A stretch of 64,000 bases of DNA, from positions 558,001 to 622,000 of the forward strand of contig NC_018207.1 in NCBI RefSeq assembly GCF_000219625.1. Reading direction: 5' to 3'. The notes under the pieces are model-generated. The model was not told the DNA's origin. It searched no databases and saw only the letters and a program-made list of their open reading frames with translations. The stretch is from Zymoseptoria tritici IPO323. Its lineage: Eukaryota; Ascomycota; Dothideomycetes; Mycosphaerellales; Mycosphaerellaceae. This document shows, one piece after another, positions 2,795-23,743 of this stretch (its first letter is position 1; the number at the start of each line of letters is the position of its first letter). Made by a program: the position numbers and the translations under genes.

Positions 2795-3733
2795 ATGGCT
2801 CACAACATCGAGCATACATGGGGGCACTACCTACCCCAGCAGCCATCTGACTACTGGAAACTTAGAAGGTACAGGTTTGCATCTGTTCTCCACATGCAGC
2901 GATTCTTGCAGTCGGTCGGCTACCACTGCACGACTTCACACACGGAATCAAAGATGAAGGCTCTCCTCGCCCGTTATGAGCAAGGTTTCCTATCCTACGG
3001 CAAATGCACAATCAGGGAGCTGAAGACATTCGTCGTTTAACGGGATGTGGCCATCGAGAGCCACAGAAAATCCAGCATGATCCAGTCTCCGGAGGAAGCA
3101 GACGATAACATCACATTCGATAAATTTTTGAACCTTCCTCCTGAACTCAGAGAGCGGATCTACAACATTCATCTCGAGAGTCTGGAGCTGGGTGGTCTTG
3201 TGAACTTGTCGCCGCCGCCCATTACCCGGACTTGTCAAGTGGTCCGCCATGAGTCTCTCTACGCTTTCAGACAACGTATGATGCTCCGCATGGCCGTGGG
3301 TCCAGGCAGCGTGCAGCTTTCACGACTGTCAGCACTGGACCTCCGCATGACCCGGAGAGTCCTCTTCACCGCATTCAAGGGGCAGACGAACGCTTTCGAT
3401 CCTCCTCAAGTCTTCCACCAGACACACTTCCTCCTCGACTGCGGTATGGAGAAAGTTGCGCCGAAGTTCTCGATTGTGGAGATTCGGCATACCAGGCAAC
3501 CCTTTGGGGGCGGCCTAAGGTCTGGACCTGGTCGTAGAATGGTAATAGAGGAGGCACATGAAGAAACCGATACCGGAAGGGCTTTGCTTCCGAAGCTGGC
3601 AGCGATTGCAGAGAATATGGGTGCGAGGTCTGAGAGGGTGTTGACGAGTGTGGACGTTTTGGCGGTGAGGCAGGTTGTTGAGGAGTTGAAGAGGACTCAG
3701 GCTGTTAAGCTGTGGCGGGGAATCGAGGAATGA
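2795..3733 (+). pseudogene. SAP-like / F-box-like protein, paralogue 3, broken by one in-frame stop
   Basis: Two frames in the same register (2795-3040 and the frame running through 3047-3733) form one paralogue. It has SDYWK, then RELKTFVV, a TAA at 3038-3040, then the F-box-like FLNLPPELRERIYNIHLES and the PPPIT segment. In paralogues 1 and 2 the equivalent position is Gln (FVRQRG, FISQRG), so a single C-to-T change (CAA to TAA) explains the break. The rest of the frame stays open for another 230 codons with no further lesion, so the break looks recent, or the downstream part is translated from an internal ATG (3047). It is more diverged than the other two and lacks the clear SAP consensus after the stop. 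A missed intron across the stop is possible, but I see no good GT-AG pair. Confidence 0.65.
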
Positions 3734-4432: not shown

Positions 4433-4954
4433 TTACCGCAGGCTCCGATGAAGGTATCGCCAGCGTGAGTTATCGATTTGTACAGTTTCCATGATCAGAC
4501 GTTGGAGTCCGCATGCTCGCTCCATTACATTATCAGAAATGTAAAAGCTGCGCGCAGTCTGCTGCCACACAAGGGCGATGAGCTCGGGGTGAAGAATCGG
4601 CTTCTGAGAGCGTAGAGGATGTCCCAGAAGGTCAACTATGTCATCCTGAAGGTGCTCGTTGAGGAGATAATGGGCTGCGATGTACAGCTTGACGTGGTCC
4701 GATTGTGGGACGACGGCATCGCAGGGACTGACGTAGTATCTATGGAAGAATGTGATCTTCCCAGTGGCCCAGCGAACATAGCTTTCCATGATATGCGGCT
4801 CGATCGAAGGCAGCTTGATGATCTTGTCTTGCCCTTCTTTCCAGGTCTCCGAACAAGCTGATGCGAAAAATGGCGACTTGGCGCAGATGGCATCTCTTTC
4901 GACGATGAATGGCTTCTCTTCGATTCCGGCAAGGAGCGTGATGGAGATCTCCAT
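4433..4954 (-). CDS. BTB/POZ domain protein
   Basis: 173-aa frame that reads as a BTB/POZ fold. It has ITLLAGIEEKPFIVERDAIC near residues 5-24, then AKSPFFASACSETWKEGQ and KIIKLPSIEPHIMESYVRWATG, followed by a helical tail containing the KLYIAAHYLLNEHLQDDIVDLL segment typical of fungal BTB proteins. Such proteins often bridge Cul3 to substrates, but fungal stand-alone BTB proteins are mostly uncharacterised. The reading frame stays open upstream of the chosen ATG (4954), so a short 5' exon is possible. Convergent or divergent partners give no functional clue. Confident on domain, uncertain on exact start. Confidence 0.75.
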   Translation of the reverse strand: MEISITLLAGIEEKPFIVERDAICAKSPFFASACSETWKEGQDKIIKLPSIEPHIMESYVRWATGKITFFHRYYVSPCDAVVPQSDHVKLYIAAHYLLNEHLQDDIVDLLGHPLRSQKPILHPELIALVWQQTARSFYISDNVMERACGLQRLIMETVQIDNSRWRYLHRSLR

Positions 4955-5321
4955 CGTCTGTGATATTCTGCTAGTTTCCGAGGCACTTCTATGGCGATAA
5001 TGGTTAGCGGTCGCCCGTGTTGATGATTGATGCAGATTGTCTTCTTACTCGGACGCGATTCGTGGCCGACTGAAGTTTTTGGGCAACTCCATGACCATTC
5101 GGAAGCGACCTCGGTCGAGAACTTTTTGGTGGTGGGGCATTGAGAAGCAAAAGGTTCTGGCGAGGTCAATGTATACATCGATGTTCAGGACAAGCACTGG
5201 AGCGAAGTTGAAGTAGTCATTGTGCACGGAGATTGGTCAATCATGGCGGAAGTATTGTTCCTCTTCAATACGAAAAATTGTCGTCTATTGTCCTTCATAA
5301 ACTTCGTGAATACTGACAGAC
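4955..5321. other. intergenic, no supported gene
   Basis: Spacer between the BTB gene start and the 3' end of the Hsp31-like gene. It contains short frames only and may hold the BTB promoter or a short 5' exon. Confidence 0.4.
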
Positions 5322-6190
5322 CTACAACGCCTTGAGAATAGCCTCGCCGATCGGTCCAGCGCTGTTTGGATTCTGTCCTGTGAGGATGGTACCACGTCCC
5401 GTGAGAAGCTTCCCATGGTTGCCAGAGCTCACGACCTTCGCACCCCAAGGCTCATCAGCCTTGACGTATTTGCCGCCGTTCTTCTTCAGCTCATCCTCAA
5501 GCATGAAAGGCATGACACTGGAAAGCTGGACTTGGTCCTCCTCGGTGTTGGAGAAGCCGGTGACCTCGGCGCCATTGACCAGGTATGAGCCGTCGCTGAG
5601 CTTGACCTTGGCGAGAGCAGCGGGTCCGTGGCAGACTGCCGACACAACTTTGCCGGCCTCGTAGAACTCGCGGATGAGTTGGTGGGACTTCTCGTCGGTC
5701 GCGAGGTCAAACATTGCTAGGAAATAGTCAATAGGAGTCATTCAACGGTCATTGTGAGGTTGAACATACGTCCGTGGCCACCAACATAAAAGATGGCGTC
5801 AAATTGGCTGGCCTTGCCAATGTAATCGCTCAGCTTCTCGGTGTTCTCCCAAAGAGCGGACTTCTCCTTAAGGAACTTCTGGGACTCTGCGTCCTCCTTG
5901 AACATTTCGACACTCGATGGATCAAGGGGCGCCTTGCCTCCTGCTGGCGACACAATTGTGATGTCAGCCTTGCCCTCCAGCTTGTAGCTAAACTTGGCGT
6001 CAGCAAGTGATCGAACGAGTCGTTGTATATACGGACTAAGGGTGCGCGAATTCCGGAAGATACCAGCCAGTAGGCTTGCCAGTGTTGCCCATCTGGTCGT
6101 GGGAAGACCTATTGTCGATCGTCAGTCTCCAAGAAGCGAAGCCGTCTGTTGCTGCGGTGCGTACAAGACGAAAAGGACCTTTGGCGACAT
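5322..6190 (-). CDS. HSP31: Hsp31-type DJ-1/PfpI protein (glutathione-independent glyoxalase III-like)
   Basis: Four exons on the minus strand: 6190-6165, 6108-6037, 5987-5770 and 5716-5322, total 711 nt, giving 236 aa, the usual Hsp31 length. The protein opens MSPKVLFVLSSHDQMG and continues NTGKPTGWYLPEFAHPYY. It contains SPAGGKAPLDP, GGHGPMFDLATDEKS and the nucleophile elbow AVCHGPAAL with the catalytic Cys. Family members convert methylglyoxal to lactate without cofactor and act as stress chaperones in the cytosol. The three introns are 49-56 bp. The third (GTATGT...CCTAG, 5769-5717) restores the GGHGPMF motif exactly, which is strong support for the model. First exon is only 26 nt. Confidence 0.9.
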
Positions 6191-8544
6191 GATGGATTGC
6201 TGTTCGTGAGGTTGTTGATGAATTGGGAGTTGATCGATGATAAGAGAACAACAATGTTTGTGTAAGAACGAGAATGCTGCCCCTCTTGACGAGCGATCTT
6301 ATGTAGGTGATGTTCTAGGCCCAATGACGTCGAATCCGCACAACGTCATGGCCGTGATTTTGACGAGACTTGTCCGAGCGATCTTCCATTCTTTCGCCTT
6401 CGTTGCTTGGTCATGAACACGATCATCTCTTCGTCGGCATTTGCGAGTCGGTGGGAGATTGCGAATGGACTCTTCTAATTCTCGATGCAGCATTGCCGAT
6501 GAGCTCAATGCGAAGCAGCCAGAATCCCATGGCATTGATGGCCCTCTTCCATTCGGCGCCTCTGCCGGCATTGAAAACTGGGAGCCAAGCACAAAATTCC
6601 ATGTACCGCCACGACATGTAACGATCGAGCTGTAGCAGCAAGAGACTGCGGACCACGAGTGGGAGTCGGAGTCGCGTTGCGGCCCCACTGGCCTCTTCAT
6701 AAACATCTCCAGAACGATACCCCGTTTACAGTGAGTCGATTGATGGAGGAAGACGGCTAATGATCGAGGTGTACACACCGACCGCCATGGAGCTGTCCCT
6801 TCGATTCGTGTCCGCCGGGAAAGGATGCATATTCCTGGAGTCCATTGCATAGTCCGCACTGGAGTTTGGACGATCAGAGTACCGCAAGCCTCTCCCAAAC
6901 GTGAGGAGCCGCCGTTCGAGTAGAGTTCAAGGACTTATAGCGGGCGAACGCGTCGCAGAGTTAGAGGGCTCGACTTGTTCACTTCTTTGCGAAAGGACCG
7001 GTAACCCTAGCCTGAGCCAACACGCTGAACGCTCTACTTCGCGGCGTTCACTCCGACAATGTCACCCAATCTGCGCCCTGGCCAACTTGAATTGCAGGCC
7101 TGACATCAGGTCCTGACAACGAATGGCTTCATGGTGTTTGGATCGAAATGTCCGTCCGCAGCTTCAATGCCGCCTCGCCGCCAGCTCAATTTCTCGCTAG
7201 CGTCCTCGCCAGTGTCTTCGCGAGCTCTTCTGTGAACTCCACACATCATTCTTCGTATGCACAACCCGGACACTGGAAGTGCGAAGGCATTGCGCACCGA
7301 ACGTTGGAGAGCGGGCTGGTCACTCAGCTTCCCAGCAGCATCTCCCTGCGAACTGATCATCCGGGTCTCAAAGAACGACCCGTCATGTCCTGCTCCCGGT
7401 CTTGCTGGGAGAGAGTGTTGTACCACAGCGTCAATCTGGCTCAGTGTGCATCTTGCTCTCGTCCCACTGCTGGAGTCTGTTCGCCATTCCACGGCTGATT
7501 CACACTTTCGAGGGTGAGAATGTCGGGCTTGTCGAGACAAGACTATTTTTCTGGACACCTTTCAGGCGGTAATTCGGGACGGTCGGATCGGTTTCGTCCA
7601 GTTTCGTCCTTCGCGCCTGCGTTGACTTCGGCCGGGGTACAGGCTCCACAGCATTCTCTCTCGCGGACCTTGCGCTGTGCGACTTGCTTCTGGCTTCCAG
7701 ACTCGACCCACTTCGAGGATGATCATGGATGTCGTCTTCTTTTGCACTCAAGCCTTGAAGGTTGGGAGACCGTTACCTCCGAAAGCGCAATCTCAACGAG
7801 CAGGGTGGCAGAAAGTCTCCTATCATCGCAGCATCGGGTAATGTGGCGACGAGATACGAATAGCGCTACTGCTGCTAGGATCTTCTCTTTCGGCCTGCGT
7901 CCAGCGGAGGGATCACCGCCCAATCCTTGTCCGCAGGCCAATTTACTAGGCACCTCCGCCAATCTGACCCTGGGCATGCCCCCTTGACACCCACCAACGG
8001 TGATCCGTCCGCTGTGCGAATATGCTGTAGTCTGCGCGCGGGCTCGATGTCGGAGCGAATGGCGAATCACCCGTGTGTGGTCGGATCCATGATGCGATGT
8101 GCGAAAGTGGGAGCTGGGCGTGGGAGGTGCTTGTAATGACAACAACCAAGCTCTCTGCTACGATCGCCGCTGGACCTGGCGAGAGTAGTCAAGGATTCGT
8201 GATGCCGACGGTGGAGGAAGGTTTTCACCTTCCAGTGCCATCCCTGTGTGCACGAGACATGTCGAATTTTGAGTAGGTGCAAGGATCAGTTGGGCGAAGC
8301 CTTTCGACGCTTGCAAGGAGCAAGATTTGTCAAAAGATACAGTATTTCTGGATATGAAAATCGTCATTTTCGTTCACAGATACCTTCGCGTCATGATCAT
8401 GAGCTGCACCGTGAGTACAGCATCGCCACCCGAGCGCACCTGACGGATGACTGTCATGACAGGGTTATAGGGAGCATACTTGGTAATTGGGCCATGGATC
8501 CTGGGCAAGCCCAGACGGTACATCGTCTCGCTGTAACTAACAAT
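6191..8544. other. gene-poor stretch, no supported gene
   Basis: Over 2.3 kb upstream of the Hsp31 gene. Several frames of 70-200 codons exist on both strands (for example 6299-6898 minus, 7106-7558 minus, 7514-7987 plus), but none shows a domain, signal peptide or convincing splice structure. They overlap one another antisense. I treat it as non-coding or eroded sequence. Confidence 0.45.
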
Positions 8545-8859
8545 CCCTGCCGATAATTGACGCTTTTGATTTTCGTATTTGACGCTTTTTTCCACGCGCT
8601 CACCAAGCAACTGCGCAGCCTTGCTCCCCTCGTCCCTCGGGTCACGGCTTTGCTAACGACAACAACATAGTTATCCTAACTGGACTAACGACGAGGTGTC
8701 CGCGACCGACACCCCACCGCTGTTGGGGGATGGTCGCAAGCTCCCAAACCCCCATTCCAGGCCGCGTGGGGGGGCCCCTCGGATCGCTCCCCAGGCTTGG
8801 CTGTTGTGTGTGAGAAAAGCGTCAAATACGAAAATCAAAAGCGTCAATTATCGACGAGG
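8545..8859. mobile_element. 315-bp MITE with 45-bp terminal inverted repeats
   Basis: Terminal inverted repeats lie at 8545-8589 and 8815-8859. They match at 42 of 45 positions, and the three mismatches are transitions in the outermost six bases. The element is flanked by an 8-bp direct repeat CTAACAAT at 8537-8544 and 8860-8867, a target-site duplication length typical of hAT elements. Inside each TIR the motif TTGACGCTTTT occurs twice, as in subterminal transposase-binding repeats. The interior has no reading frame of note, so this is a non-autonomous element. The superfamily call (hAT) rests on duplication length only. Confidence 0.8.
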
Positions 8860-9075
8860 CTAACAATGCTTGCGCCGTACGGAGTATTGTGTAACTTGTG
8901 TCGCATTACGGTATGACCCGGATCTCCCCTTGCACGATCATTTCCCACGGACGTCGTCGATTGAGCGATTCCCTCGTATATAGCGCGCCTTGCTCACCGA
9001 TGCTTTTGATCTCGTTCATTTCCGAAAACGCTACAGTACAACCAACCTCTCCGACTACCACGACGACGAGAAATC

Positions 9076-9455
9076 ATGCAGTTCTCTCAGCTCACCATCG
9101 TGCTTCTCTCTATCGCCTCGACCGCCTTTGCCCGTATACGTGCCGGCGTACGTCCCACTCCTCCTTGAGGATTTAATCTTCTCCATCTTTCTAACAACGA
9201 CAACGATATCTAGTCATGCGACCGTGGCGCTGGACGCTTCGGCACTTGCCACATCCCCGGGGATGGTCAAGGCTATGAAGGCTTCGACGTGGACTGCAGC
9301 CAAGTATGTTGCGTACAGTTCCAATGTTCGGTCCATGCGCGCTTTACTGACACTGCGTGAAGAACTCGCCATGCATTTCGGACAAACATCCCCGAGTTCC
9401 TTTGCGTTGCAATCTCATCGACAACAGCCTGGAAGCTCTTTGCTATAACCAGTAA
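9076..9455 (+). CDS. small secreted cysteine-rich protein (84 aa), candidate effector
   Basis: Three exons, 9076-9147, 9214-9303 and 9363-9455 (72, 90 and 93 nt), all joined in phase 0. Introns are 66 and 59 bp, with GTACGT and GTATGT donors and CTAAC and CTGAC branch sites. Residues 1-19 form a signal peptide (MQFSQLTIVLL..., cleavage after AFA). The mature part has six cysteines: SCDR, GTCH, VDCSQ, SPCIS, LRCNL and ALCYN. Size, secretion and even cysteine count resemble fungal apoplastic effectors or antimicrobial proteins. I recognise no named family and assign no function. A CT-rich leader and TATA-like TATATAG precede it near 8977. Confidence 0.7.
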
Positions 9456-9701
9456 CGAGGTCGAGGGCCATCTTATGGACGTGGTCACAAGTGTCCATCT
9501 CTGAGGACTATTTCAACGATGCTGGAGATCTTTGGAGGATGGGGTGTTTGGACGGCAAGGTCGCTGGATGACGGGTCTAATTAATGCGGGCGCTGCAAAA
9601 TATGATTGGGATTGAATTTGCTCGATTTGTCTCCTCGCTGTATTTGAGCTTACCACATGTGAGCCACGTGTAGCAACATCCACTGCTTCGTCACTCTGCA
9701 T

Positions 9702-11278
9702 TCAGCTGCCTCCTGGCCCGTCCAGCTCCCGGCGCACCGGGTGCTTCTTGTCGAGCCATGCCTGGACTTGCCCGAGATCGTCAATGTCGACAGTGTGTGC
9801 GTAAATTCCCGACCGAGGAAACACCATGAGAGAACGCTTGGGTCAATTGCGGTCAACGGACATGCATGTGGGTGCTCTTGGTACCATCTTTTATGTATGC
9901 CGTTCTTGATCTCAACGTTGTGCTGCGGTGTCTCGAACTGCTTGCCTTGGGCCTTGAGCTCTTCATGAGGTGAACGACCCGCAACGGAGCATGTCGCTCA
10001 ACGGAATGCCGGTATTCCAAGCGTATAGCTTCACTTCCACTGGCATAGTAGACCTCTATTCCGCAATAAACGAGCACTCAGCTGCTTCATCGAGAAGATC
10101 AAAATATCCGGACGTATAGCGCCGATTTTGTTAGCGAGACTGATCTCCACGGCAATGAGAGCACTGGAGAGTGGTGTTGTGTATCTGAGCCCAGTCGATA
10201 TGGTGGCACACGAGATTCACATCCAGATGGCGTACGAAGTCGATGGGATATGCAGCTACCGCTCAAATTGCCGTCTCACCTCCGTCTTCGAGCTCAACAT
10301 CCATGTGGTACTCGTGTTCATCCTTTGATACGTTTCGTCGGAACCGAGGCTGGCGCTTTTCTCGATGCCAATGTCAAAATTCTGGTACTAGTCTGCACGG
10401 AGGTATGCATCGCCTTCTTCATATCTGCCCTCTCACCGCCCGCCATCTCGCCATCTTCCATCTTGCCCTCTTTCATCTCGCCAACCCCTTTCTCGACATA
10501 TCTCTCCTCAGCCTCCTGGACGATTTGCGCCGGGAGTTGAGCCTGGTGAAAGCGGACTTTGGATGCATGTAAGACGGTGTCCTCGTACGCTTGGGCGGTC
10601 TGATCGTTCCCATAAGTCGTGCTAGGTGGCTCGACGCCGATGTCTAGGTTTTGATAGTAGTCAGAGCGGAGGAAGGTGCGAGATCTGCATACTCGTCGTC
10701 TGATTCTTCGTCGTCGTCGGAACCAACATCATCATCTTCAGAGTCAGAAGATCCAAAAGCTTTCCAGAGACACCAGGGTATAGGTCGTTGCAGTACACTC
10801 CCGTCTTCGTACTCTGTCCTGGAAAAGTTCAAAATCAAAGCATCATCATGGGGTTATTCCACCCTGTCTCATCTCGCCTTCTTTCCACTCTTGGTGGCTC
10901 GCATGCGTCGTAAGTGCAAGTACAAATGAAAACATCATCCCTCTGCGCTGTGACAATATGCGCCTTTGCATGCTGCTTCTCGGCAGGATTGATGGTGCGT
11001 GCATCGTCGGTGGCGATCAGGTTGTCCACAATGTCCTGGTCCGTGATGCGACCTTTCAGTGTGAATGTGTGAGTTATAGCCTTCCTGAACTTGGGCTCGT
11101 GGGTCGTAGTGCTGGTGGTGCTGGTGGTGCCGTCGTAGACATTCGCGAGTGGAATGGTAGCAATCTGTTGCTGGCCGTCGTCGAGACATGCGAGACTCAA
11201 TGCTGGGATGGTGACCTTGGGAGTGTTGCACGAGGCTTGCTGAAAGATCAGTGCCCGGCGCGCGAGCTCTGCTTCCAT
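9702..11278 (-). CDS. hypothetical multi-exon protein (exon borders approximate)
   Basis: Coding-like stretches in several minus-strand frames suggest one spliced gene, though I could not join them all. The start is at 11278 (MEAELARRALIFQQ...). The first exon is about 130 codons, then an acidic segment near 10840-10660 (SSDSEDDDVGSDDDEESDDEY). A helical exon near 10645-10390 (VEPPSTTYGNDQTAQAYEDT..., EEGKMEDGE-like) follows, and the end lies near 9702 (HTVDIDDLGQVQAWLDKKHP). The pyrimidine-rich stretch at 11280-11415 looks like its promoter and leader. No known domain is recognised. The acidic tract suggests a nuclear protein. Parts may be eroded or belong to two genes. Confidence 0.35.
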
Positions 11279-11417
11279 GGTGAAAGTGGTGTCTTGTCAG
11301 TTGAGAATGTCGGTTGTTGTGGTATTGACGTTGCGAGTATGTTGAAGGAACGAATGAAAGAAGAAGAATAAGAAGGTTGTATGAAGTGGTAGAAGCAAAC
11401 GGAACTGCATTGTGGAT

Positions 11418-11934
11418 CTATATCATGATGACCTTCGGCTTCTGCTGCTGTTCATCTGCGACCTCTCGAACTTTGTCTTCATACCACTTGATGTTATGAT
11501 GCTCGCTGGTAGACATGTTGTGTTGTACTGGGTATTGTTGTTGCGTTGTTGCATGGCATCGTCTGCACGGAGCGACGTCCTGAACCCGGGACTGACGATT
11601 CTGTCGTCCACTTGCAAGCTCCGACCCAACGGAGTCATATTCTGAGTCGGACAGGTCAGGCTCTCCACTCTCGCTGGTGTCATCGTCGGTGTCGAGGACA
11701 GGAATTTTGTTGGCGGTCGAAGGCTCAAAGTCAGAGTCCGATTCTTCTCTGATGATACGCTTGGACTTCTTCGGCGGCGGAGCGCTGAGTGTCTTTGTGG
11801 CCCTGGATCTGCTGCTGGTCAACGGGATGGCGGGTGATTTGCTCTCGCCATTCCGTTGGCCTGCCTGCCTTCTGGTTAGTGGGCGGGAAGAGATCAGCAG
11901 ACGAGGACACGGTCCGTTTCGACTTTCGCGCCAT
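11418..11934 (-). CDS. hypothetical basic/acidic low-complexity protein
   Basis: The frame 11822-11418 encodes a basic patch (PPPKKSKRIIREE) followed by acidic repeats (DTDDDTSESGEPDLSDSEYDS) and a C-terminal CRRC motif. An ATG at 11934 (MARKSKRT) can be joined in frame by a roughly 48-bp intron (GTGTCC...GGCAG). The donor is weak, so the N terminus is tentative. Composition suggests a nuclear protein with disordered regions. No domain is recognised. Confidence 0.4.
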
Positions 11935-12186
11935 AGTTGAAGACCTGCAATGGCGGTGCGAGCATTTGACGACTGCAGAAAGAACTTACAGAACCAAGGC
12001 CATCATCTCCGTGGATGCCATCGGTGATGAAGCCAGCAGCAAGCCAAATCGGCAGGACTCATGTCGCGGTACTATCACGCCGGATCCCGTACTTTGTGAG
12101 ATTCTGGGCCAATGTGTACGCCGTCCTCCTGCGAGTGGACTCCATCGTTGCCACTTCTCAGCTCAGTCTCAGCCGAAGGTGATCAT
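11935..12186. other. intergenic, no supported gene
   Basis: Upstream region of the minus-strand gene ending at 11934. Nothing recognisable before the minisatellite. Confidence 0.35.
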
Positions 12187-12530
12187 CTGTAGGTCTTATC
12201 GGCATGTCCCGGCCAAGTACGTGTACCAGACATGACGAGTGAGCTGTACGCCTAAGCAGCATGTCCTATCAATGTATCTGTACGTCCAAATGGCAGTGGC
12301 TGCCACCTCGGTAAGTGACTTGCCTGTACGCCTTGCTAGGCCGTCCTGTACTTTGTCTGCACGGCCACATAGGCTGCCCTGTCAGACTATCTGTACGATC
12401 AAGAAGCTGTCCATCCAAGTGACCTGGACGCTTGAGTAGAGTGTCCTGCTAATTCATCTGCACGCGGAATGGAGTGTGTCGGCAGGTCACCTGTACCCGG
12501 ATCGCATGACCCGGACTCCGGGATGTCAAG
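12187..12530. repeat. diverged tandem minisatellite, 33/34-bp period
   Basis: Units begin CTG[TCG]ACG and usually carry a G[TC]CC core about 20 bases in. Starts are at 12187, 12244, 12278, 12324, 12357, 12391, 12424, 12458 and 12491. Spacing from 12324 onward is 33, 34, 33, 34, 33, 33; the 12278 unit is 46 bp and the first interval is 57. The alternating 33/34 step is not a multiple of three, so this is not a coding repeat. Individual units differ at many positions, so it is old. Function unknown. Confidence 0.65.
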
Positions 12531-14023
12531 GTCATTATCAAGACGGACCTCCCCAGGGCGTTGTATATTGCTTTCGAGGCTGGCACGGAGGTGTAAGACT
12601 GCGACGTAGCATCAGTACTTTGAATGTTCTGTCACCAAGATGCGGCGTTCCTTCGCTCTGGCATGGCATGGGCATCGGAGCGAAGGCCGAAGTTCCCCGA
12701 TCACGGACAGCGGTGTGACAAGAACTCAAGGCGTAGAGGAACTGGCATGAGCGTCTACGTCTCGCATGCCTTTCGTCGCCGCGTAGCATGCTGTCAGGTC
12801 GACATTGACCACAGCCACGCAGTTTCTCGTACATTCGTGTGACGGTTTAATCGCGTTCGATCGCGCAAAGTGTCCGTACTCAGATCCTGTGGGATGAAGC
12901 ATGACAAACCTTGCCATATGGGCTGATGTGGCCGCTCCGTGGTGAAAAACGAGCCGTGAAGTCAACTCAGGCTATCGGCTAGCGCATCACATCACTCGAT
13001 TCTAGCGTGGCGGATGCATTGATGGTTGTATCGGACCACGTGTTGTCGCTCGAGCGCCCAAGAGGTGAGAATAGCAACACGTCGTATTCCATTATTCGCC
13101 AACACGGACGTCTCGCTTGTCCCACGGATGGAAGAGGCCACACTGCTCGTGTCGACTTGATCCTTCTTGGCCGGATCCTTGAATGGCATCATCGACGTAG
13201 TCTTGAAGTAGACTTCCGAACTTCCGATGCGATCGAATGCTCAGCCAGCCTCTCGGAAGTATGAATACGCCCAGAACTTCTGGAAGACCGCCCAGCAGCG
13301 TCGTAGGCTACGCCGAGCGACGCTACGGCGAATGCTCCGTCGTATGGAACAGACCACGCTCCCAAGACTGATGGTGAGACTTGCAAGAAGCGGTGACAAC
13401 ACTGCCCAGACCCGCCGAGAGGTCTGCAGGCGCAGGAACTCTCAGCTCGCCGTCTCGCTGCATTGCGAGAGACCTGCATAGCTCCAAAATCCCCCATTCG
13501 CTGCCGGAGGTCCTGTCGTAGGGTGAGGTGGTATGCATAAGCGGCGTGGCTGCATTCGATAGTCGTAAAGCAAGAGCTTGATGGTGAAGGTGGTGTGCTC
13601 GATCAGGACGATTGGTGAGAGCTGCAGAGCAGGGCAGGGTTCTCCGCAATGGGATCTTCGGCTACAAAGCCGAGCCGCGCATGGCTTGGCGTTAGACCGC
13701 AGGCCATGAGTACGGTCGATGGCTTTTACACAACACAATGGACATTTTGTGAGAGCAGTGGCCGATGTTGGACGTACAAGACTTAGAGCATTTGCTGAAT
13801 AGTCATCCACGCATACAATCGATCGATACAGGTTAAGTCTGACCAAAAAGGTCCGTACTATGAAGGGGCAGTTTGTGAACGGAGAAATCGACAAGAAGTA
13901 CAGAGCACAGTATCGTTGCTAAGGAATGAATTATGTATCTGAATATTCGTTAAGGACAGGTCGTGATCGAGTAACGTCGTAATGCGAAGCCAAAATATCT
14001 CTGCAGGCGATCAATCTGATGAT
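12531..14023. other. gene-poor stretch, no supported gene
   Basis: Overlapping frames of 60-150 codons on both strands lack domains, signal peptides or splice structure. It lies downstream of the precursor-like gene. Nothing further can be supported. Confidence 0.4.
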
Positions 14024-14585
14024 CTACTGGGCCTCCTCCACAGCAGCCTCCTCGCGACGGTAGTGTCCGTACGACTTGTACTCGTGGGGCAGAGCAGCCT
14101 TTTTATAGTCTCCGTAGTTGGAGTACTGTTCTAGGATTAGCAATACATTCGTCTTCTTCAGCGGCAGAGCAACTTACTTTGCCGTAGTTCTCAGGTTGCT
14201 TGGTCTCTTTGTACGACCCGTAAGTGCTGTAAGTCTGAGCCTTGGGAGTGTTGGCCGCCTCAGCTTCGGGCTGGGCTACGGGCGCCGCCTCGGCCTCGGC
14301 CTCGCGGCGGTAGTGCCCGTAGGAGGTGTACTCATGAGGAAGCTTCTGTAAACAAGTCAGCAAGACCCTCGTGTTGGACCGTTGGCCTATACTAACGGCA
14401 TCTTTATAGTCTCCGTACGAGGCATACTGCTGGAGCGTTAGCAAGAGTCGTCGGCGTAGACCAGGCTCTCAAGTTACCTTCGCGGCGGCAGCCTTGTCGG
14501 GGCAAGCAGTCCTCTTCTCAGTGGGTGCAGCGAGGACGCTGGTGGCGGACAGAGCAACAGCGAGGATGGCGAAGACGTTCTTCAT
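14024..14585 (-). CDS. secreted Tyr-rich repeat precursor, candidate RiPP precursor peptide
   Basis: Four exons, 14585-14478, 14429-14397, 14345-14178 and 14125-14024 (108+33+168+102 nt), giving 136 aa; all introns are phase 0. Residues 1-19 are a signal peptide ending VLA, followed by the dibasic EKR at 23-25. Five octads fit Y-x-[STN]-Y-G-[DHS]-Y-[KR] at residues 38-45, 53-60, 86-93, 104-111 and 119-126. Dibasic Kex2-type sites follow two of them as RR (60-61, 126-127) and one as KK (111-112). After RR60-61 comes EAEAEA, like the Ste13-trimmed spacer of yeast alpha-factor. A longer unit, YGDYK..LPHEY.SYGHYRRE, occurs twice. Exon borders fall between modules. Divergent from a UstYa-family gene, it fits a dikaritin-type RiPP precursor. 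A cell-wall or other processed secreted protein is the alternative. Confidence 0.85.
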
Positions 14586-15400
14586 GGTTGCGGTTGAAAG
14601 GTCGTTGAAAGTTGCAAAGAGTCGAGAATGGTTGCTTTGGATGGAGTTCAAGCGAAAGTCAATGGTGAATGATCAAAAGCTGTCCCACCGGACGTCGCAC
14701 ACTCTTTATGCAAACAGCTCCAACAGCAAACACGAAAGCACAGCCCTTGGCCCACCTCGAGCTCTCCGCTCTGCAAAGGATCTCCACGTCAGCGATCGTA
14801 TTCTCACAGACTATTGCCAAAGCTTCAAGACTCACGGCACATCCTCCCAAGAATCAGCTCATGCAAAGCCAGCCACCACGGCGCAGTGGCATGTTCACAA
14901 GGATCAGCTCCGCGCAAAGCAGCCACCAAGGCTTCGGTGGTGGCAATGCGGCCCAGCGCTCAGCCGATGGGATGAATTTCTCCGTGCTATAATGGGACGC
15001 AGCATAGCCGTATCTGCAGGTTAGTACGAGATACATCGACCACTTTGCAAGCCTTGGCTGAATTGGCCCAGCTGAGGTCGTGCCAATTCTTTGACGTACA
15101 AGATCGACGGCGGAGGATTTGTGGAGTTTCGCTCAGCTGATGATCGCGCTTGTGGACGCTAGTGGCTGCATTAGCGTCGCTTTGTATCGTGTTAGGGTCC
15201 ACTCCTTCAGCTACGCCTCGCGAGGTCCATATTTGGAAGGTTTTCGTGTTCTTGGAGGTTTCTTGGATGTAGTCATCTAGCTAGACGTCAGTTACCGAAG
15301 AGCTTCGAGCTCCACGGTCGAGCATTTTGCTTCCCTCATTACTCGTTTTCTCCTCGAATCATACCACCTTGAACATTTCCTTTCCAAGCAAGTCGACACA
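14586..15400. promoter_or_regulatory. divergent intergenic region between precursor and UstYa-like gene
   Basis: 815 bp shared upstream region, the natural place for co-regulation of the two genes. It contains an imperfect direct repeat at 14853-14882 and 14903-14932: both copies start ATCAGCTC and share GCAAAGC and AGCCACCA. A CT-rich leader precedes the UstYa-like ATG. No supported gene inside. Confidence 0.5.
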
Positions 15401-16419
15401 ATGGCTGCTGTTCCATTGCTGAAAGAAGAGCCGATGGGTTCAGAGGATGGCTACGACAGAACAGAAGATCTCTCTTCCGACCGAAGGAAACAATTACCAC
15501 TTCTACGAACAGCCAACATCGGATGGGCGGTTCTGTGCGCTGGTCTGCTCGGTCTGACCATTGGAATTACAGCAGGTGTCGCCATTCTGGTCGTGCAAGG
15601 CTGGAGTTCGAAATCAGAAACATGTATATCAAAAACAGCGGGACCGTCACCAGTAACGAGAGATGTGGATATCACCTACCATACAGAGCAGTTCAACGGA
15701 TCGTTGATGATGGAGAACATCTACCGATTGCCTGGAAGTCCAGAGGTCGATGCTGCGTGGGAGGCGTTGGGCGTGAATTGTGGGTTGCCGCAGATACAGT
15801 CCGACAGAACTTCCGTTGACGATAGCGTTCAGATCGCCCACTCCAAGTCCCGTACGAAGTCGGCCTAGAAATCGGCCTTTCTCCAGATCAGGTGAAATTG
15901 CAGAAGCAGCACGGCGGTGGCTTCCCAGCAAACGTAGAAGGGTTGCATCATCTACACTGCGCAGTAAGTCGTTCGACCCCCCTCTTCCAAAGACACTCAC
16001 CAACCCCATGTCCAGAACTTGGTCCGACAAGCCCTCTACTACAACATCGACTACTACCGCGACCTCGGAACCGGAGCCTTCCAAAACGAGCCCCACATCG
16101 TGCAAAAGCACGTCTGTGAGTCACAAACCTGCACCTCGAACTAACGCCCATATACTGACTCCCAACAGCACACTGCCTAGACGTTATCCGGCAACAGCTC
16201 ATGTGCACAGTCGACATCGGAGTCCTCGGCCAAGTCTGGTTCCAGCCCGGCGACTCCGACGTCCCAGAGCCTTTCGTCGACTTCAACACAAAACATGTGT
16301 GTCGGAACTTCGATGCGATTCGACAATGGGCGGAAGAGCGACAGATGCCTGAGGAGGTGCCGGATGATTTGATACAGCCACCAGAGCCGGGCGACTATAT
16401 CTATGATCATGTACCATAG
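15401..16419 (+). CDS. UstYa-family (DUF3328) oxidase-like membrane protein
   Basis: Exons 15401-15772, 15826-15963, 16016-16115 and 16169-16419 total 861 nt, giving 286 aa. One transmembrane helix lies at about residues 40-67 after a short polar N terminus. The DUF3328 signature follows: YRLPGSPEVDAAWEALG, GGGFPANVEGLHHLHC (HHLHC at 165-169), NLVRQALYYNIDYY, then HVSHCLDVIRQQLMC (HVSHC at 202-206). It ends PEPFVDFNTKHVCRNFDAIR. Both HxxHC motifs are intact. UstYa and UstYb cyclise ustiloxin, and relatives act on asperipin, phomopsin and cyclochlorotine, probably as metal-dependent oxidases on Tyr-containing substrates. The first intron has a GTGAAT donor and is the least certain. Next to a Tyr-rich Kex2-type precursor, its job is probably to crosslink that peptide (inference). 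Confidence 0.9.
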
Positions 16420-21886: not shown

Positions 21887-22418
21887 TGTCGCCAATGAGG
21901 GGGACGAGGAGGAGGAGGAGGAGGAGCTCGTTCGATCGGGAGATGTATGTGTGTTGTGAGAGTGGTGGATGTGAGTAAGATTTCCTTGGTCGTCAAAAAA
22001 TCCCAAGTCGAGCTTCCCAGAGCTCTCCCCGCCAAATGGCCATTGACTTCTGTCAGGTCACGACTCGACACCCGATCTCTAGTCACGACTTGTACACTGC
22101 AATAGAGAAGAGGTTCTTCGATGCAACCGCATCAGAAACAGGCTACCTTGCGATAGACAGTCGACAAGTTTGTAGCATTTCAATGTCACTTTTATGTACC
22201 CTTCAATTCTATTCGTCCGCTTGGCGCGAATTCCGGCCATTGTTTATCCTCCCGGGCCCGAATCACCGTAACGTCCGCCGGAAGGATTCGAAGGAGGCGC
22301 CCATCCGGAGACTGCAATGCCCGTGTGCGACCATGAGTACTCTTGTCCTGCCAGACGCGCCATGCGACTACACACTCATCGTTTACTTATATATACTGCT
22401 CTCGCGACCGCATCGAAA
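21887..22418. promoter_or_regulatory. divergent promoter region, OTC / FAD monooxygenase
   Basis: 532 bp between divergent starts. A TATATATA run sits at 22388-22395, only 24 bp before the ATG at 22419. That raises the possibility that translation of the monooxygenase really starts further down, at 22512. No gene inside. Confidence 0.45.
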
Positions 22419-23743
22419 ATGAGTACCATTGCAAGCCGTCTTCGACGAAAGCTGGTAGCACAAAACACCTTGACCTCACAAGTACAGGCTTACACCACCT
22501 CGACTAGAAAAATGCACAGCATGAAGATTGAGAAGCCCATCGCCATCCTCGGCGCAGGCCCGGCCGGCCTCATGCTAGGTCGTCTCCTCGACCTTTCCAA
22601 AATACCTTTTACCATCTTTGAGCGAGACACAGAGCCTCGCAATCGACAAGGCAGCGGGACTCTAGATGTGCATCCTGGTACTGGTCAGCTCGCCCTCAAA
22701 GAAGCAGGTCTATTCCCACAATTCAAAGAACTCGCTCGCTTCGGCGTCCGCAACAGGTTCGTCGACGAGAAGGGAAAGGTACTCGCCGACGTGGGAGGGG
22801 AAGGCGACGAGGACAGACCCGAGATCGATCGCCTCGATTTGCAGCGCATCATACAGGAGACAATCCCGCCGGGGAAGATTCAATGGGGAAGTAAGGTCCG
22901 GGATGTTGGCAGGAACACGAACGGTGCAGTCGAGATTCACATGGCTGACGGGAAGGTTGAGTCCGGCTTCGGTCTGGTCGTGGGAGCAGATGGAGCGTGG
23001 TCAAAGGTTCGGAATCTGTTCACCTCTATCAGTCCACAGTATTCGGGTACAACATTCCTCGGCACAACGATCCTGCCCGGAGATGAGGTCTATGAATCGG
23101 CGGACTCCCTGGCAGCGCGAGGAAACTTCCTGGCCATCCGTGGGTACCAGAAGATCTTCTTGTACTACTTGGGTGATCGATCGTACAAGATATACGTGGG
23201 CTCAGACCTCGCGCGTAATCAGAAACTCGATGACGCACTCCTCTCCGATCCCCTGGAGGTCTGGAAGTCGGTATTTTCCAGTGATTTCAAGGAATGGTCA
23301 TCCACACTCACCGACCTGGTCAGCAAGAGCGCCAGAGGATATGGGACGTGGCCGTTCTACCATTTACCCAAGGAGGCTCTGTCGTGGGACCCCGTCCCAG
23401 GCGCTGCTTTAGTCGGAGACGCGGCGCACGTAACGTAAGTGGCAGACCAGTAGATGAGCGAGTGCATCACTAGCTAACTCATATTCCCAGCGTTCCGAAT
23501 GGAGAGGGCGTCAACAACGCCATGTTCGACAGTCTCGAACTCGCTCAGCAGATCATCAAGCACTGGTCGGGCGACTTGGAGCAGGCTGTGGCGGAGTATG
23601 AGAAGACGATGATTCCGAGAGCGCGGGGGAGCCTAGAGGACGGAGAAATGATGATGAAGACGTTGTTCGGACCTGATGCTCCAGAGAGTCTTTTGCAGGC
23701 TTTCGGCTTCCCAGTCGATGGAAGTGGTTCAAGGGTTGATTGA
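22419..23743 (+). CDS. FAD-dependent monooxygenase, TetX-like (FAD_binding_3)
   Basis: Two exons, 22419-23434 and 23491-23743 (1269 nt, 422 aa). The intron GTAAGT...CTAAC...CCAG restores HVTVPNGEGVNNAMFDSLELA. The protein carries the dinucleotide-binding GAGPAGLMLGRLL near residues 42-54, FERD, then GSGTLDVHPGTGQLALKEAG. Further on come VVGADGAWSKVR and the second FAD motif GAALVGDAAHVTVPNGEG. This resembles flavoprotein hydroxylases of the TetX/salicylate hydroxylase group, which insert oxygen into aromatic or polyketide substrates with NAD(P)H; the substrate is unknown. An Arg/Ser-rich N terminus could target mitochondria if the 22419 start is used. The alternative start at 22512 (MHSMKIEKPIAILG) removes it. 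No biosynthetic cluster surrounds it. Confidence 0.85.

What the first reader, a model, noticed from the sequence alone, without database searches (positions are those of the whole stretch)
14024..16419. Minimal dikaritin-type RiPP cluster: UstYa-family gene divergent from a Tyr-rich, Kex2-site repeat precursor
Seen: a 136-aa secreted protein with five Tyr-rich octads and dibasic sites, and 815 bp away a 286-aa membrane protein with both HxxHC motifs of DUF3328. Established: in ustiloxin, asperipin-2a, phomopsin and related pathways a Kex2-processed repeat precursor is encoded next to UstYa-type oxidases that crosslink Tyr-containing cores. Inference: this pair makes a crosslinked peptide from the YxxYGxY core, a core sequence I do not recognise from a described family. 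The absence of a second UstYa, tyrosinase or methyltransferase nearby suggests either a very small cluster or scattered genes.
Basis: partly seen in the sequence, partly recalled or inferred. Interest (0 to 1): 0.92.

Follow-up and report, generated by a model that had tools for sequence, protein, structure and literature searches.

The report
Fungal tyrosine-peptide gene beside crosslinking enzyme
A wheat leaf-blotch fungus carries a small secreted protein with five tyrosine-rich repeats back to back with a gene for an enzyme of the kind that crosslinks tyrosines in fungal peptides, probably a two-gene peptide pathway whose precursor also carries a processing signal usually seen in fungal mating pheromones.

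Summary
On the minus strand (14024-14585, four exons) lies a 135-aa secreted-type protein with five YxxYGxY motifs; 815 bp away, divergent, lies a 286-aa UstYa-family protein (PF11807, 178 bits) with both HxxHC motifs. The organism is very probably Zymoseptoria tritici. In the same genome, 5 of 20 fetched UstYa regions hold an ordinary Kex2-repeat precursor, all five divergent like this pair.

The reading "minimal dikaritin cluster with an octad core" is partly right. Fixed Kex2-type sites frame units of 33 and 64 residues, not octads; the KK site is lost in another isolate. There is one UstYa, no tyrosinase within about 155 kb, no S41 peptidase match on the contig. New here: one RR is followed by eight X-Ala/X-Pro dipeptides, the STE13 ladder of alpha-pheromone precursors, not seen in the five ordinary precursors. 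The UstYa belongs to a deeply conserved Pezizomycotina group, while precursor relatives are doubtful. Cross-species synteny, expression and product could not be tested, so chance adjacency is not excluded. Verdict: new variant of a known kind, moderate confidence.

The parts
14024..14585 (-). Gene for a 135-aa secreted-type Tyr-rich repeat protein (putative precursor), 4 exons
   Evidence: Splicing; matches P0001 of Z. tritici ST99CH_3D1 at 99%; no Pfam family at E <= 1
14526..14585 (-). Signal-peptide-like N-terminus (residues 1-20, MK + hydrophobic stretch + VLA-A)
   Evidence: Read by eye from the translation; no signal-peptide program was available
14511..14516 (-). KR (residues 24-25), putative Kex2 site at the end of the pro-part, followed by TA-CP
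14406..14426 (-). YxxYGxY motif 1 (YASYGDY, residues 37-43), in its own 30-bp exon
14310..14330 (-). YxxYGxY motif 2 (YTSYGHY, residues 52-58)
14304..14309 (-). RR (residues 59-60), putative Kex2 site, kept in isolate 3D1
14256..14303 (-). STE13-type ladder: eight consecutive X-Ala/X-Pro dipeptides (residues 61-76) directly after RR
   Evidence: run of 8, reached in 0 of 20,000 shuffles of the window protein
14211..14231 (-). YxxYGxY motif 3 (YSTYGSY, residues 85-91)
14105..14125 (-). YxxYGxY motif 4 (YSNYGDY, residues 103-109)
14099..14104 (-). KK (residues 110-111), a variable dibasic site: KN in isolate 3D1
14060..14080 (-). YxxYGxY motif 5 (YKSYGHY, residues 118-124)
14054..14059 (-). RR (residues 125-126), putative Kex2 site before a 9-residue tail
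14586..15400 (.). 815-bp divergent intergenic stretch between the two start codons
   Evidence: coordinates
15401..16419 (+). UstYa-family (DUF3328) membrane-type oxidase gene, 286 aa, 4 exons
   Evidence: PF11807 178.3 bits; splicing; aligned relatives from other species 44-69% identical
15946..15960 (+). First HxxHC motif (HHLHC, residues 165-169)
   Evidence: H165, H168, C169 invariant in 40 of 40 aligned sequences
16109..16176 (+). Second HxxHC motif (HVSHC, residues 202-206), split by intron 16116-16168
   Evidence: H202, H205, C206 invariant in 40 of 40 aligned sequences

Best explanation
A head-to-head two-gene peptide pathway. Shown: the precursor gene encodes a secreted-type protein with five Tyr ladders (YxxYGxY), basic sites, and an alpha-factor-style X-Ala/X-Pro ladder after one RR; the UstYa gene encodes a DUF3328 protein with an N-terminal hydrophobic helix and both HxxHC motifs intact. 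Inferred: the precursor enters the secretory pathway; UstYa oxidises tyrosines in the ladders there (ether or Tyr-Tyr type crosslinks, as characterised UstY-type enzymes do); Kex2 cuts after KR25, RR60 and RR126; a STE13-type dipeptidyl aminopeptidase removes the X-Ala/X-Pro pairs and a Kex1-type carboxypeptidase the basic ends. The products would be about 29-33 and 48-64 residues long with two and three Tyr ladders (in the window's isolate the KK could split the second), not free octapeptides. A single UstY-type enzyme could suffice, as in asperipin-2a. The biological role of the product is not known.
For: Family and intact motifs of the enzyme. Five Tyr ladders far above chance. Divergent layout, as in 5 of 5 canonical precursor/UstYa pairs recognised in 20 fetched regions of the same genome. 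Of those five UstYa genes, three (L020, L026, L030) score 111, 106 and 94 bits with the window group's profile, the best of the sampled paralogues besides L004 at 107; the other two (L023, L039) score only 29 and 33. STE13 ladder in register with RR60, kept in 3D1. A metagenome protein, P0122, has the same order of parts: Tyr ladders, K-x-R, then runs of 4 and 5 such dipeptides (sum 9: 0 of 20,000 shuffles; longest 5: 34 of 20,000). Both proteins are found in a second isolate, each with listed longest contig 1,546,792. In print, 22% of 7,878 KEPs have a DUF3328 gene nearby and 65.6% of the repeated sequences in those contain Tyr (PMC7329392 section 7); asperipin-2a comes from a four-gene cluster with one UstY-type enzyme (PMC6514808 passages).
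Against: The UstYa group is conserved across Pezizomycotina and separates from the sampled paralogues of this genome (97/91 branch), whereas the precursor found no relative outside Z. tritici at E <= 0.1 and only P0122 and P0123 at E 1.3 and 1.9; with motif blocks held intact, their similarity in the mature part is reached in 89 and 38 of 2,000 shuffles, so homology is unproven. P0123 shows no ladder (run of 1). The Le Marquer KEP criterion fails. No tyrosinase near and no S41 peptidase match on the contig. With tens of UstYa genes in the genome, chance adjacency is not negligible. No expression or product data.
Confidence: 0.55

Rival explanations
1. Chance neighbours: the UstYa is a conserved oxidase with its own widespread substrate, and the Tyr-repeat gene is an unrelated fast-evolving secreted protein (cell-wall or structural) that happens to lie next to it.
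For: Deep conservation of the UstYa against near-absence of precursor relatives; the variable KK site; 61 exon-level PF11807 matches in the genome make a neighbouring UstYa not rare; a lone YGQYGSY between two other UstYa loci proved to lie in a long frame that reads like an unrelated membrane protein, which shows that such closeness can be accidental.
Against: Same divergent layout as 5 of 5 canonical pairs; the neighbour is just the kind of protein (secreted-type, Tyr-repeat, basic sites) that UstY-type enzymes act on; no second open frame with three or more such motifs was seen among the 100 of 120 places listed.
Confidence: 0.28
2. A linear, pheromone-like or signalling peptide precursor: Kex2, Kex1 and STE13 release plain peptides, and UstYa is not involved or acts elsewhere.
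For: Eight-step STE13 ladder after RR60, the mark of alpha-pheromone precursors (PMC6339444 section 9; PMC9769878 passages); 98.6% of 216 putative fungal pheromones have no DUF3328 neighbour (PMC7329392 section 8), so the two marks rarely go together.
Against: No Pfam domain, a pheromone one included; units are long and not the short identical cores of alpha-pheromones; five Tyr ladders beside a DUF3328 gene are what crosslinked peptides show.
Confidence: 0.12

Closest known systems
Asperipin-2a (aprA/aprY, Aspergillus flavus)
   Same: A single UstY-type enzyme, a small cluster, and a Tyr-rich core with two Tyr residues three apart (FYYTGY; PMC6514808 passages)
   Different: Short hexapeptide core; the cluster has a transporter and a reductase; here the motif is YxxYGxY, the units are long, and neither further gene was recognised beside the pair
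Ustiloxin and phomopsin pathways (dikaritins in the strict sense)
   Same: Secreted repeat precursor with Kex2-type sites beside a DUF3328 protein
   Different: Those have a tyrosinase, two or more DUF3328 proteins and tailoring enzymes, and a YxIx core; none of these was found here
Ascomycete alpha-pheromone precursors
   Same: Kex2-type site followed by a run of X-Ala/X-Pro dipeptides for STE13
   Different: Those give short linear peptides and almost never have a DUF3328 neighbour; no pheromone domain here
P0122 (unnamed metagenome protein, 180 aa) and P0123 (Paraphaeosphaeria sporulosa DPSP01_009577, 96 aa)
   Same: Signal-like N-terminus and several YxxYGxY motifs (7 and 3); P0122 also has basic sites followed by X-Ala/X-Pro runs
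   Different: E-values 1.3 and 1.9, homology unproven; P0122 has K-x-R in place of RR; P0123 has no ladder; genomic context unknown

Membership tests
UstYa / DUF3328 family (PF11807) | Profile match above the curated cut-off | tested here: met
   178.3 bits against 25, profile positions 10-220 of 220
UstYa / DUF3328 family (PF11807) | Two HxxHC motifs (proposed mark of RiPP-related members, PMC12048977 passages) | tested here: met
   HHLHC at 165 and HVSHC at 202; H/H/C of both invariant in 40 of 40 aligned relatives
Dikaritin cluster, five-gene definition (as told in PMC12048977) | Precursor with leader and repeated core motifs | tested here: inconclusive
   Signal-like start and five motifs, but repeats are uneven and only partly bounded by Kex2-type sites
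Dikaritin cluster, five-gene definition (as told in PMC12048977) | Tyrosinase in the cluster | tested here: not met
   Nearest PF00264 match on the contig at C12:729887, about 155 kb from the UstYa gene
Dikaritin cluster, five-gene definition (as told in PMC12048977) | Several DUF3328 genes | tested here: not met
   Next PF11807 matches on C12 at 502 kb and 698-701 kb, over 70 kb away
Dikaritin cluster, five-gene definition (as told in PMC12048977) | Peptidase or transporter in the cluster | tested here: inconclusive
   No S41 peptidase match on C12; no transporter family among 20 open frames tested in the left half of the window, but only selected frames were tested
Dikaritin cluster, five-gene definition (as told in PMC12048977) | Methyltransferase in the cluster | tested here: inconclusive
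   None among the same 20 open frames; no dedicated search
Dikaritins, product definition | Peptide with an oxidative side-chain crosslink made by the DUF3328 enzyme | not testable with these tools
   Needs LC-MS and a gene deletion
KEP (Le Marquer 2019 criterion, PMC6339444 section 24) | A pattern of at least three similar fragments between cleavage sites | tested here: not met
   Cut at KR/RR, only two fragments carry motifs (site list). Counted by hand; their pipeline was not run
KEP (Umemura 2020 criterion, PMC7329392 section 13) | At least three tandem repeats of 8 or more residues between KR/KK/RK/RR | tested here: inconclusive
   Three motif-bearing fragments if the variable KK counts (window), two in isolate 3D1; their repeat score was not computed
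Alpha-pheromone-type precursor | Kex2-type site followed by repeated X-Ala/X-Pro dipeptides | tested here: met
   Run of 8 after RR60; 0 of 20,000 shuffles of the window protein and 1 of 20,000 of P0001 reach it
Alpha-pheromone-type precursor | Pheromone Pfam domain | tested here: not met
   0 Pfam families at E <= 1

The most novel reading that the evidence does not exclude
A hybrid kind of peptide pathway: a pheromone-style precursor (Kex2 plus STE13 ladder) whose long, Tyr-laddered units are crosslinked by a dedicated, deeply conserved UstYa, giving secreted multi-crosslinked mini-proteins of 30-60 residues instead of small macrocycles. The conserved enzyme would stay while the precursor drifts beyond ordinary sequence search, so the same pair would be waiting, unannotated, beside this UstYa orthologue in many Pezizomycotina.
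Probability: 0.27. Interest if true: 0.72.

Novelty: new variant of a known kind. Interest (0 to 1): 0.5.

Why it matters
Genome-mining rules for fungal ribosomal peptides ask for at least three near-identical repeats bounded by Kex2 sites. This gene misses or barely meets those rules because its repeats are uneven, split by introns and only partly bounded, yet it has the enzyme, the layout and the tyrosines. If real, such precursors are being missed, and the STE13 ladder next to a UstYa would link two kinds of secreted peptide (linear pheromones and crosslinked peptides) that a large survey found almost wholly apart.

Tried and rejected
Relatives of the precursor: two protein searches gave only Z. 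tritici plus two doubtful proteins at E 1.3 and 1.9 among 510 candidates; searching the own genome with those two gave nothing and two matches at E 0.858 inside a 5,526-aa open frame.

Synteny in other fungi: scans of genome contigs (bacteria and archaea) and viral contigs with P0002 found no relative; neither is a fungal collection, so this says nothing. I hoped to use neighbouring locus tags, but no precursor relative with a usable tag came up.

Motif clusters elsewhere (100 of 120 places listed): a tandem of three at C6:1411884-1411940 has an in-frame TGA in each unit, and five places within 4.8 kb at C4:1561584-1566384 are spread over both strands; neither was followed further. A lone YxxYGxY at C7:1323892 between UstYa loci was followed up and rejected: it lies in a long open frame that reads like an unrelated membrane protein (judged by eye).

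Flanks of a UstYa paralogue (C12:502 kb) show no repeat precursor by eye. The scan for YxIx phomopsin-type cores in the fetched loci gave only scattered single matches, none in a repeat.

The tree has many long branches and only 6 of 42 starred forks; I use it only for the tight group around the window UstYa.

Papers: no paper naming this locus was seen in searches (listings); of PMC9632046, PMC9453070, PMC7099791, PMC5006380 and PMC9233826 I saw passages only. Supplements could not be read, so the gene may sit in published tables (PMC7329392, PMC6339444, PMC8939313).

Full report
What is there. The window lies at C12:558001-622000 of a 39.69-Mb genome in 21 contigs. Its two proteins match Z. 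tritici ST99CH_3D1 proteins at 99% and 96%, so the organism is very probably Zymoseptoria tritici; the size and contig number fit the reference isolate IPO323 (recalled, from no call). The precursor gene has four exons on the minus strand, three short introns with GT/AG ends, and gives 135 aa, the length of P0001. The UstYa gene has four exons and gives 286 aa, PF11807 at 178.3 bits.

Is it more than chance? Five YxxYGxY motifs in a mature part of 115 residues: at most 2 in 20,000 composition shuffles, mean 0.013. The DNA pattern for one motif occurs 120 times in the genome against 259 for the reversed control, so single motifs mean nothing. Only 100 of the 120 places are listed (the list ends before the window's five); among them I saw no other open frame with three or more: a tandem of three at C6:1411884 has in-frame stops and a loose group of five at C4:1561584-1566384 lies on both strands. 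Motifs 1-2 and 4-5 form a duplicated unit of about 26 residues still alike at DNA level (alignment).

Processing signals. Dibasic sites are KR24, RR59, KK110 and RR125. In 3D1 the KK reads KN (K111N), and the only other difference is T79A. So the fixed sites frame residues 26-58 and 61-124, with two and three motifs: long units, not octads. Directly after RR60 stand eight consecutive X-Ala/X-Pro dipeptides (EA EA EA AP VA QP EA EA). With basic sites fixed and the other mature residues shuffled, 0 of 20,000 shuffles reach a run of 8 in the window protein and 1 of 20,000 in P0001. The stretch is Ala/Glu/Pro-rich, so the shuffle is a lenient null; but the six longest runs all lie in the register that begins right after RR. 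Such ladders are the STE13 mark of alpha-pheromone precursors (PMC6339444 section 9; PMC9769878 passages). In the fetched loci one other dibasic site is followed by five or more such dipeptides, apart from copies of this one (L036, a Pro/Ser-rich frame). Genome-wide, the DNA pattern MGN plus three [D/E]A codons has 13 matches, as many as its control (13), so this short pattern alone is not rare; the window's is C12:572287, and by coordinates none of the other 12 lies beside a PF11807 match.

Controls in the same genome. A scan of these 20, of L001, L004, L006 and of the window for similar fragments between dibasic sites printed many frames, most of them other-frame or low-complexity artefacts; by eye five are canonical precursors, all in the 20 regions: L020 (SISPSVESYDGASVEEKR), L023 (TDDGDDAAVYAYAPSKR), L026 (DEAYDYPRDSGYSFITKPEEETEQ...KR), L030 (GEWDYEPTPHYYPPAADSANIPVEKR) and L039 (DPEAQRGGIMDYIKR). 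In 5 of 5 the precursor is transcribed divergently from a UstYa match, as in the window (L023 has a second, weak UstYa match, 13.9 bits, on the precursor's strand). None of the five shows a STE13 ladder after the one KR tested in each unit (runs 0, 0, 0, 2, 0). The window precursor itself is not caught by that scan, because introns split its repeats and the sites are few.

The enzyme. Forty aligned relatives keep all six H/H/C residues of the two HxxHC motifs. Relatives reach 68% in Pseudocercospora fuligena and 57% over 84% of the query in Aspergillus fischeri (527 proteins at E <= 1e-10, 120 listed). In the tree the window protein sits inside this group (20 rows, 97/91) and no sampled Z. tritici paralogue joins it. 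By the group's profile it scores 423 bits (some of its relatives built the profile); the next in the scanned loci are L020 111, L004 107, L026 106 and L030 94, three of which lie beside canonical Tyr-containing precursors; the UstYa genes beside the other two precursors, L039 and L023, score 33 and 29. Between the two isolates all 11 UstYa differences lie at residues 21-135 and none in 136-286. The AlphaFold model of P0002 has one long N-terminal helix (37-79) and the two motifs in helices 162-176 and 196-216, with moderate confidence (pLDDT 73.7).

Surroundings. To the right come a KH/BBP-type splicing factor, acetolactate synthase small subunit, ornithine carbamoyltransferase, an FAD-binding monooxygenase frame (22272-23438), a Tag1-type protein and an Alg9-like mannosyltransferase. 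To the left are a DJ-1/PfpI frame (5322-5741) and seven tested frames from 7.1 to 13.9 kb without a Pfam match. The FAD monooxygenase is the only conceivable tailoring enzyme recognised, about 6 kb away behind housekeeping genes. The right half of the window (beyond 34 kb) was not annotated. Nearest tyrosinase match on the contig about 155 kb away; the three S41 peptidase matches are on C2, C4 and C10.

Relatives of the precursor. Beyond Z. tritici only P0122 (180 aa, metagenome) and P0123 (96 aa, Paraphaeosphaeria sporulosa) came up, at E 1.3 and 1.9. Both have a signal-like start and several motifs. Plain shuffles never reach the alignment scores (0 of 2,000), but when the motif blocks are held intact the mature parts are matched or beaten by 89 and 38 of 2,000 (full length: 1 and 3 of 2,000): shared motif, unproven homology. 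P0122 repeats the order Tyr ladders, K-x-R, X-Ala/X-Pro runs of 4 and 5 (sum 9: 0 of 20,000; longest 5: 34 of 20,000); P0123 does not (run 1, reached by 5,397 of 20,000).

Mechanism and judgement. I take the pair as a UstYa-modified peptide pathway with pheromone-style trimming (0.55). For: enzyme, layout, tyrosines, second isolate. Against: conserved enzyme with no proven conserved partner, failed or borderline KEP criteria, no synteny or product data. In the Umemura survey 22% of 7,878 KEPs have a DUF3328 gene nearby (section 7), while 98.6% of 216 putative pheromones have none (section 8); a ladder and a UstYa together would be an uncommon combination. Fungal RiPP clusters have been predicted for IPO323 (PMC8939313 passages), but I could not see whether this locus is among them.

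Noticed in passing
L020 (C1:5645300-5655200), repeats at 7134-7670: Canonical Kex2-repeat precursor (VESYDGASVE, 10 exact copies) divergent from a UstYa match; a likely RiPP precursor of this genome.
   Followed up: partly
L026 (C2:1914700-1924600), 8043-8627; L030 (C3:1697800-1707700), 6950-7207: Two further Tyr-rich canonical precursors (7 copies with DYPRDSGYSFITKPEEE; 4 copies with GEWDYEPT), both divergent from UstYa matches.
   Followed up: partly
L023 (C2:1041700-1051600), 4939-5124; L039 (C6:719000-728900), 3089-3334: Precursors with AAVYAYAPSKR (4 exact copies; an S41 peptidase match lies near at C2:1043960) and AQRGGIM (6 exact copies), each divergent from a UstYa match.
   Followed up: partly
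G000:C4:1682555-1691947: S41 peptidase, tyrosinase (C4:1688404) and three UstYa places within 10 kb, the fullest dikaritin-like set seen in this genome; no repeat precursor was recognised in L031/L032 by two scans.
   Followed up: partly
G000:C6:755440-757462: Tyrosinase and UstYa matches side by side; region not fetched.
   Followed up: no
window 15401-16419: All 11 amino-acid differences of the UstYa between two isolates lie at residues 21-135, none in the 151-residue C-terminal part with both motifs.
   Followed up: no
window 14427-14477: Intron 1 of the precursor ends in CAGCAG, a tandem acceptor that would add or drop one Gln before the first Tyr ladder.
   Followed up: no
P0122 (metagenome protein, 180 aa): Looks like a three-unit precursor with Tyr ladders, K-x-R sites and X-Ala/X-Pro runs; its contig (5,074 bases) might show a UstYa neighbour but could not be read here.
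   Followed up: partly
window 7000-14000: Apparently gene-poor stretch: seven tested open frames between 7.1 and 13.9 kb give no Pfam match, next to a housekeeping block on the right.
   Followed up: no
G000:C4:1561584-1566384: Five chance-level Y..YG.Y DNA matches within 4.8 kb on both strands, unexplained.
   Followed up: no
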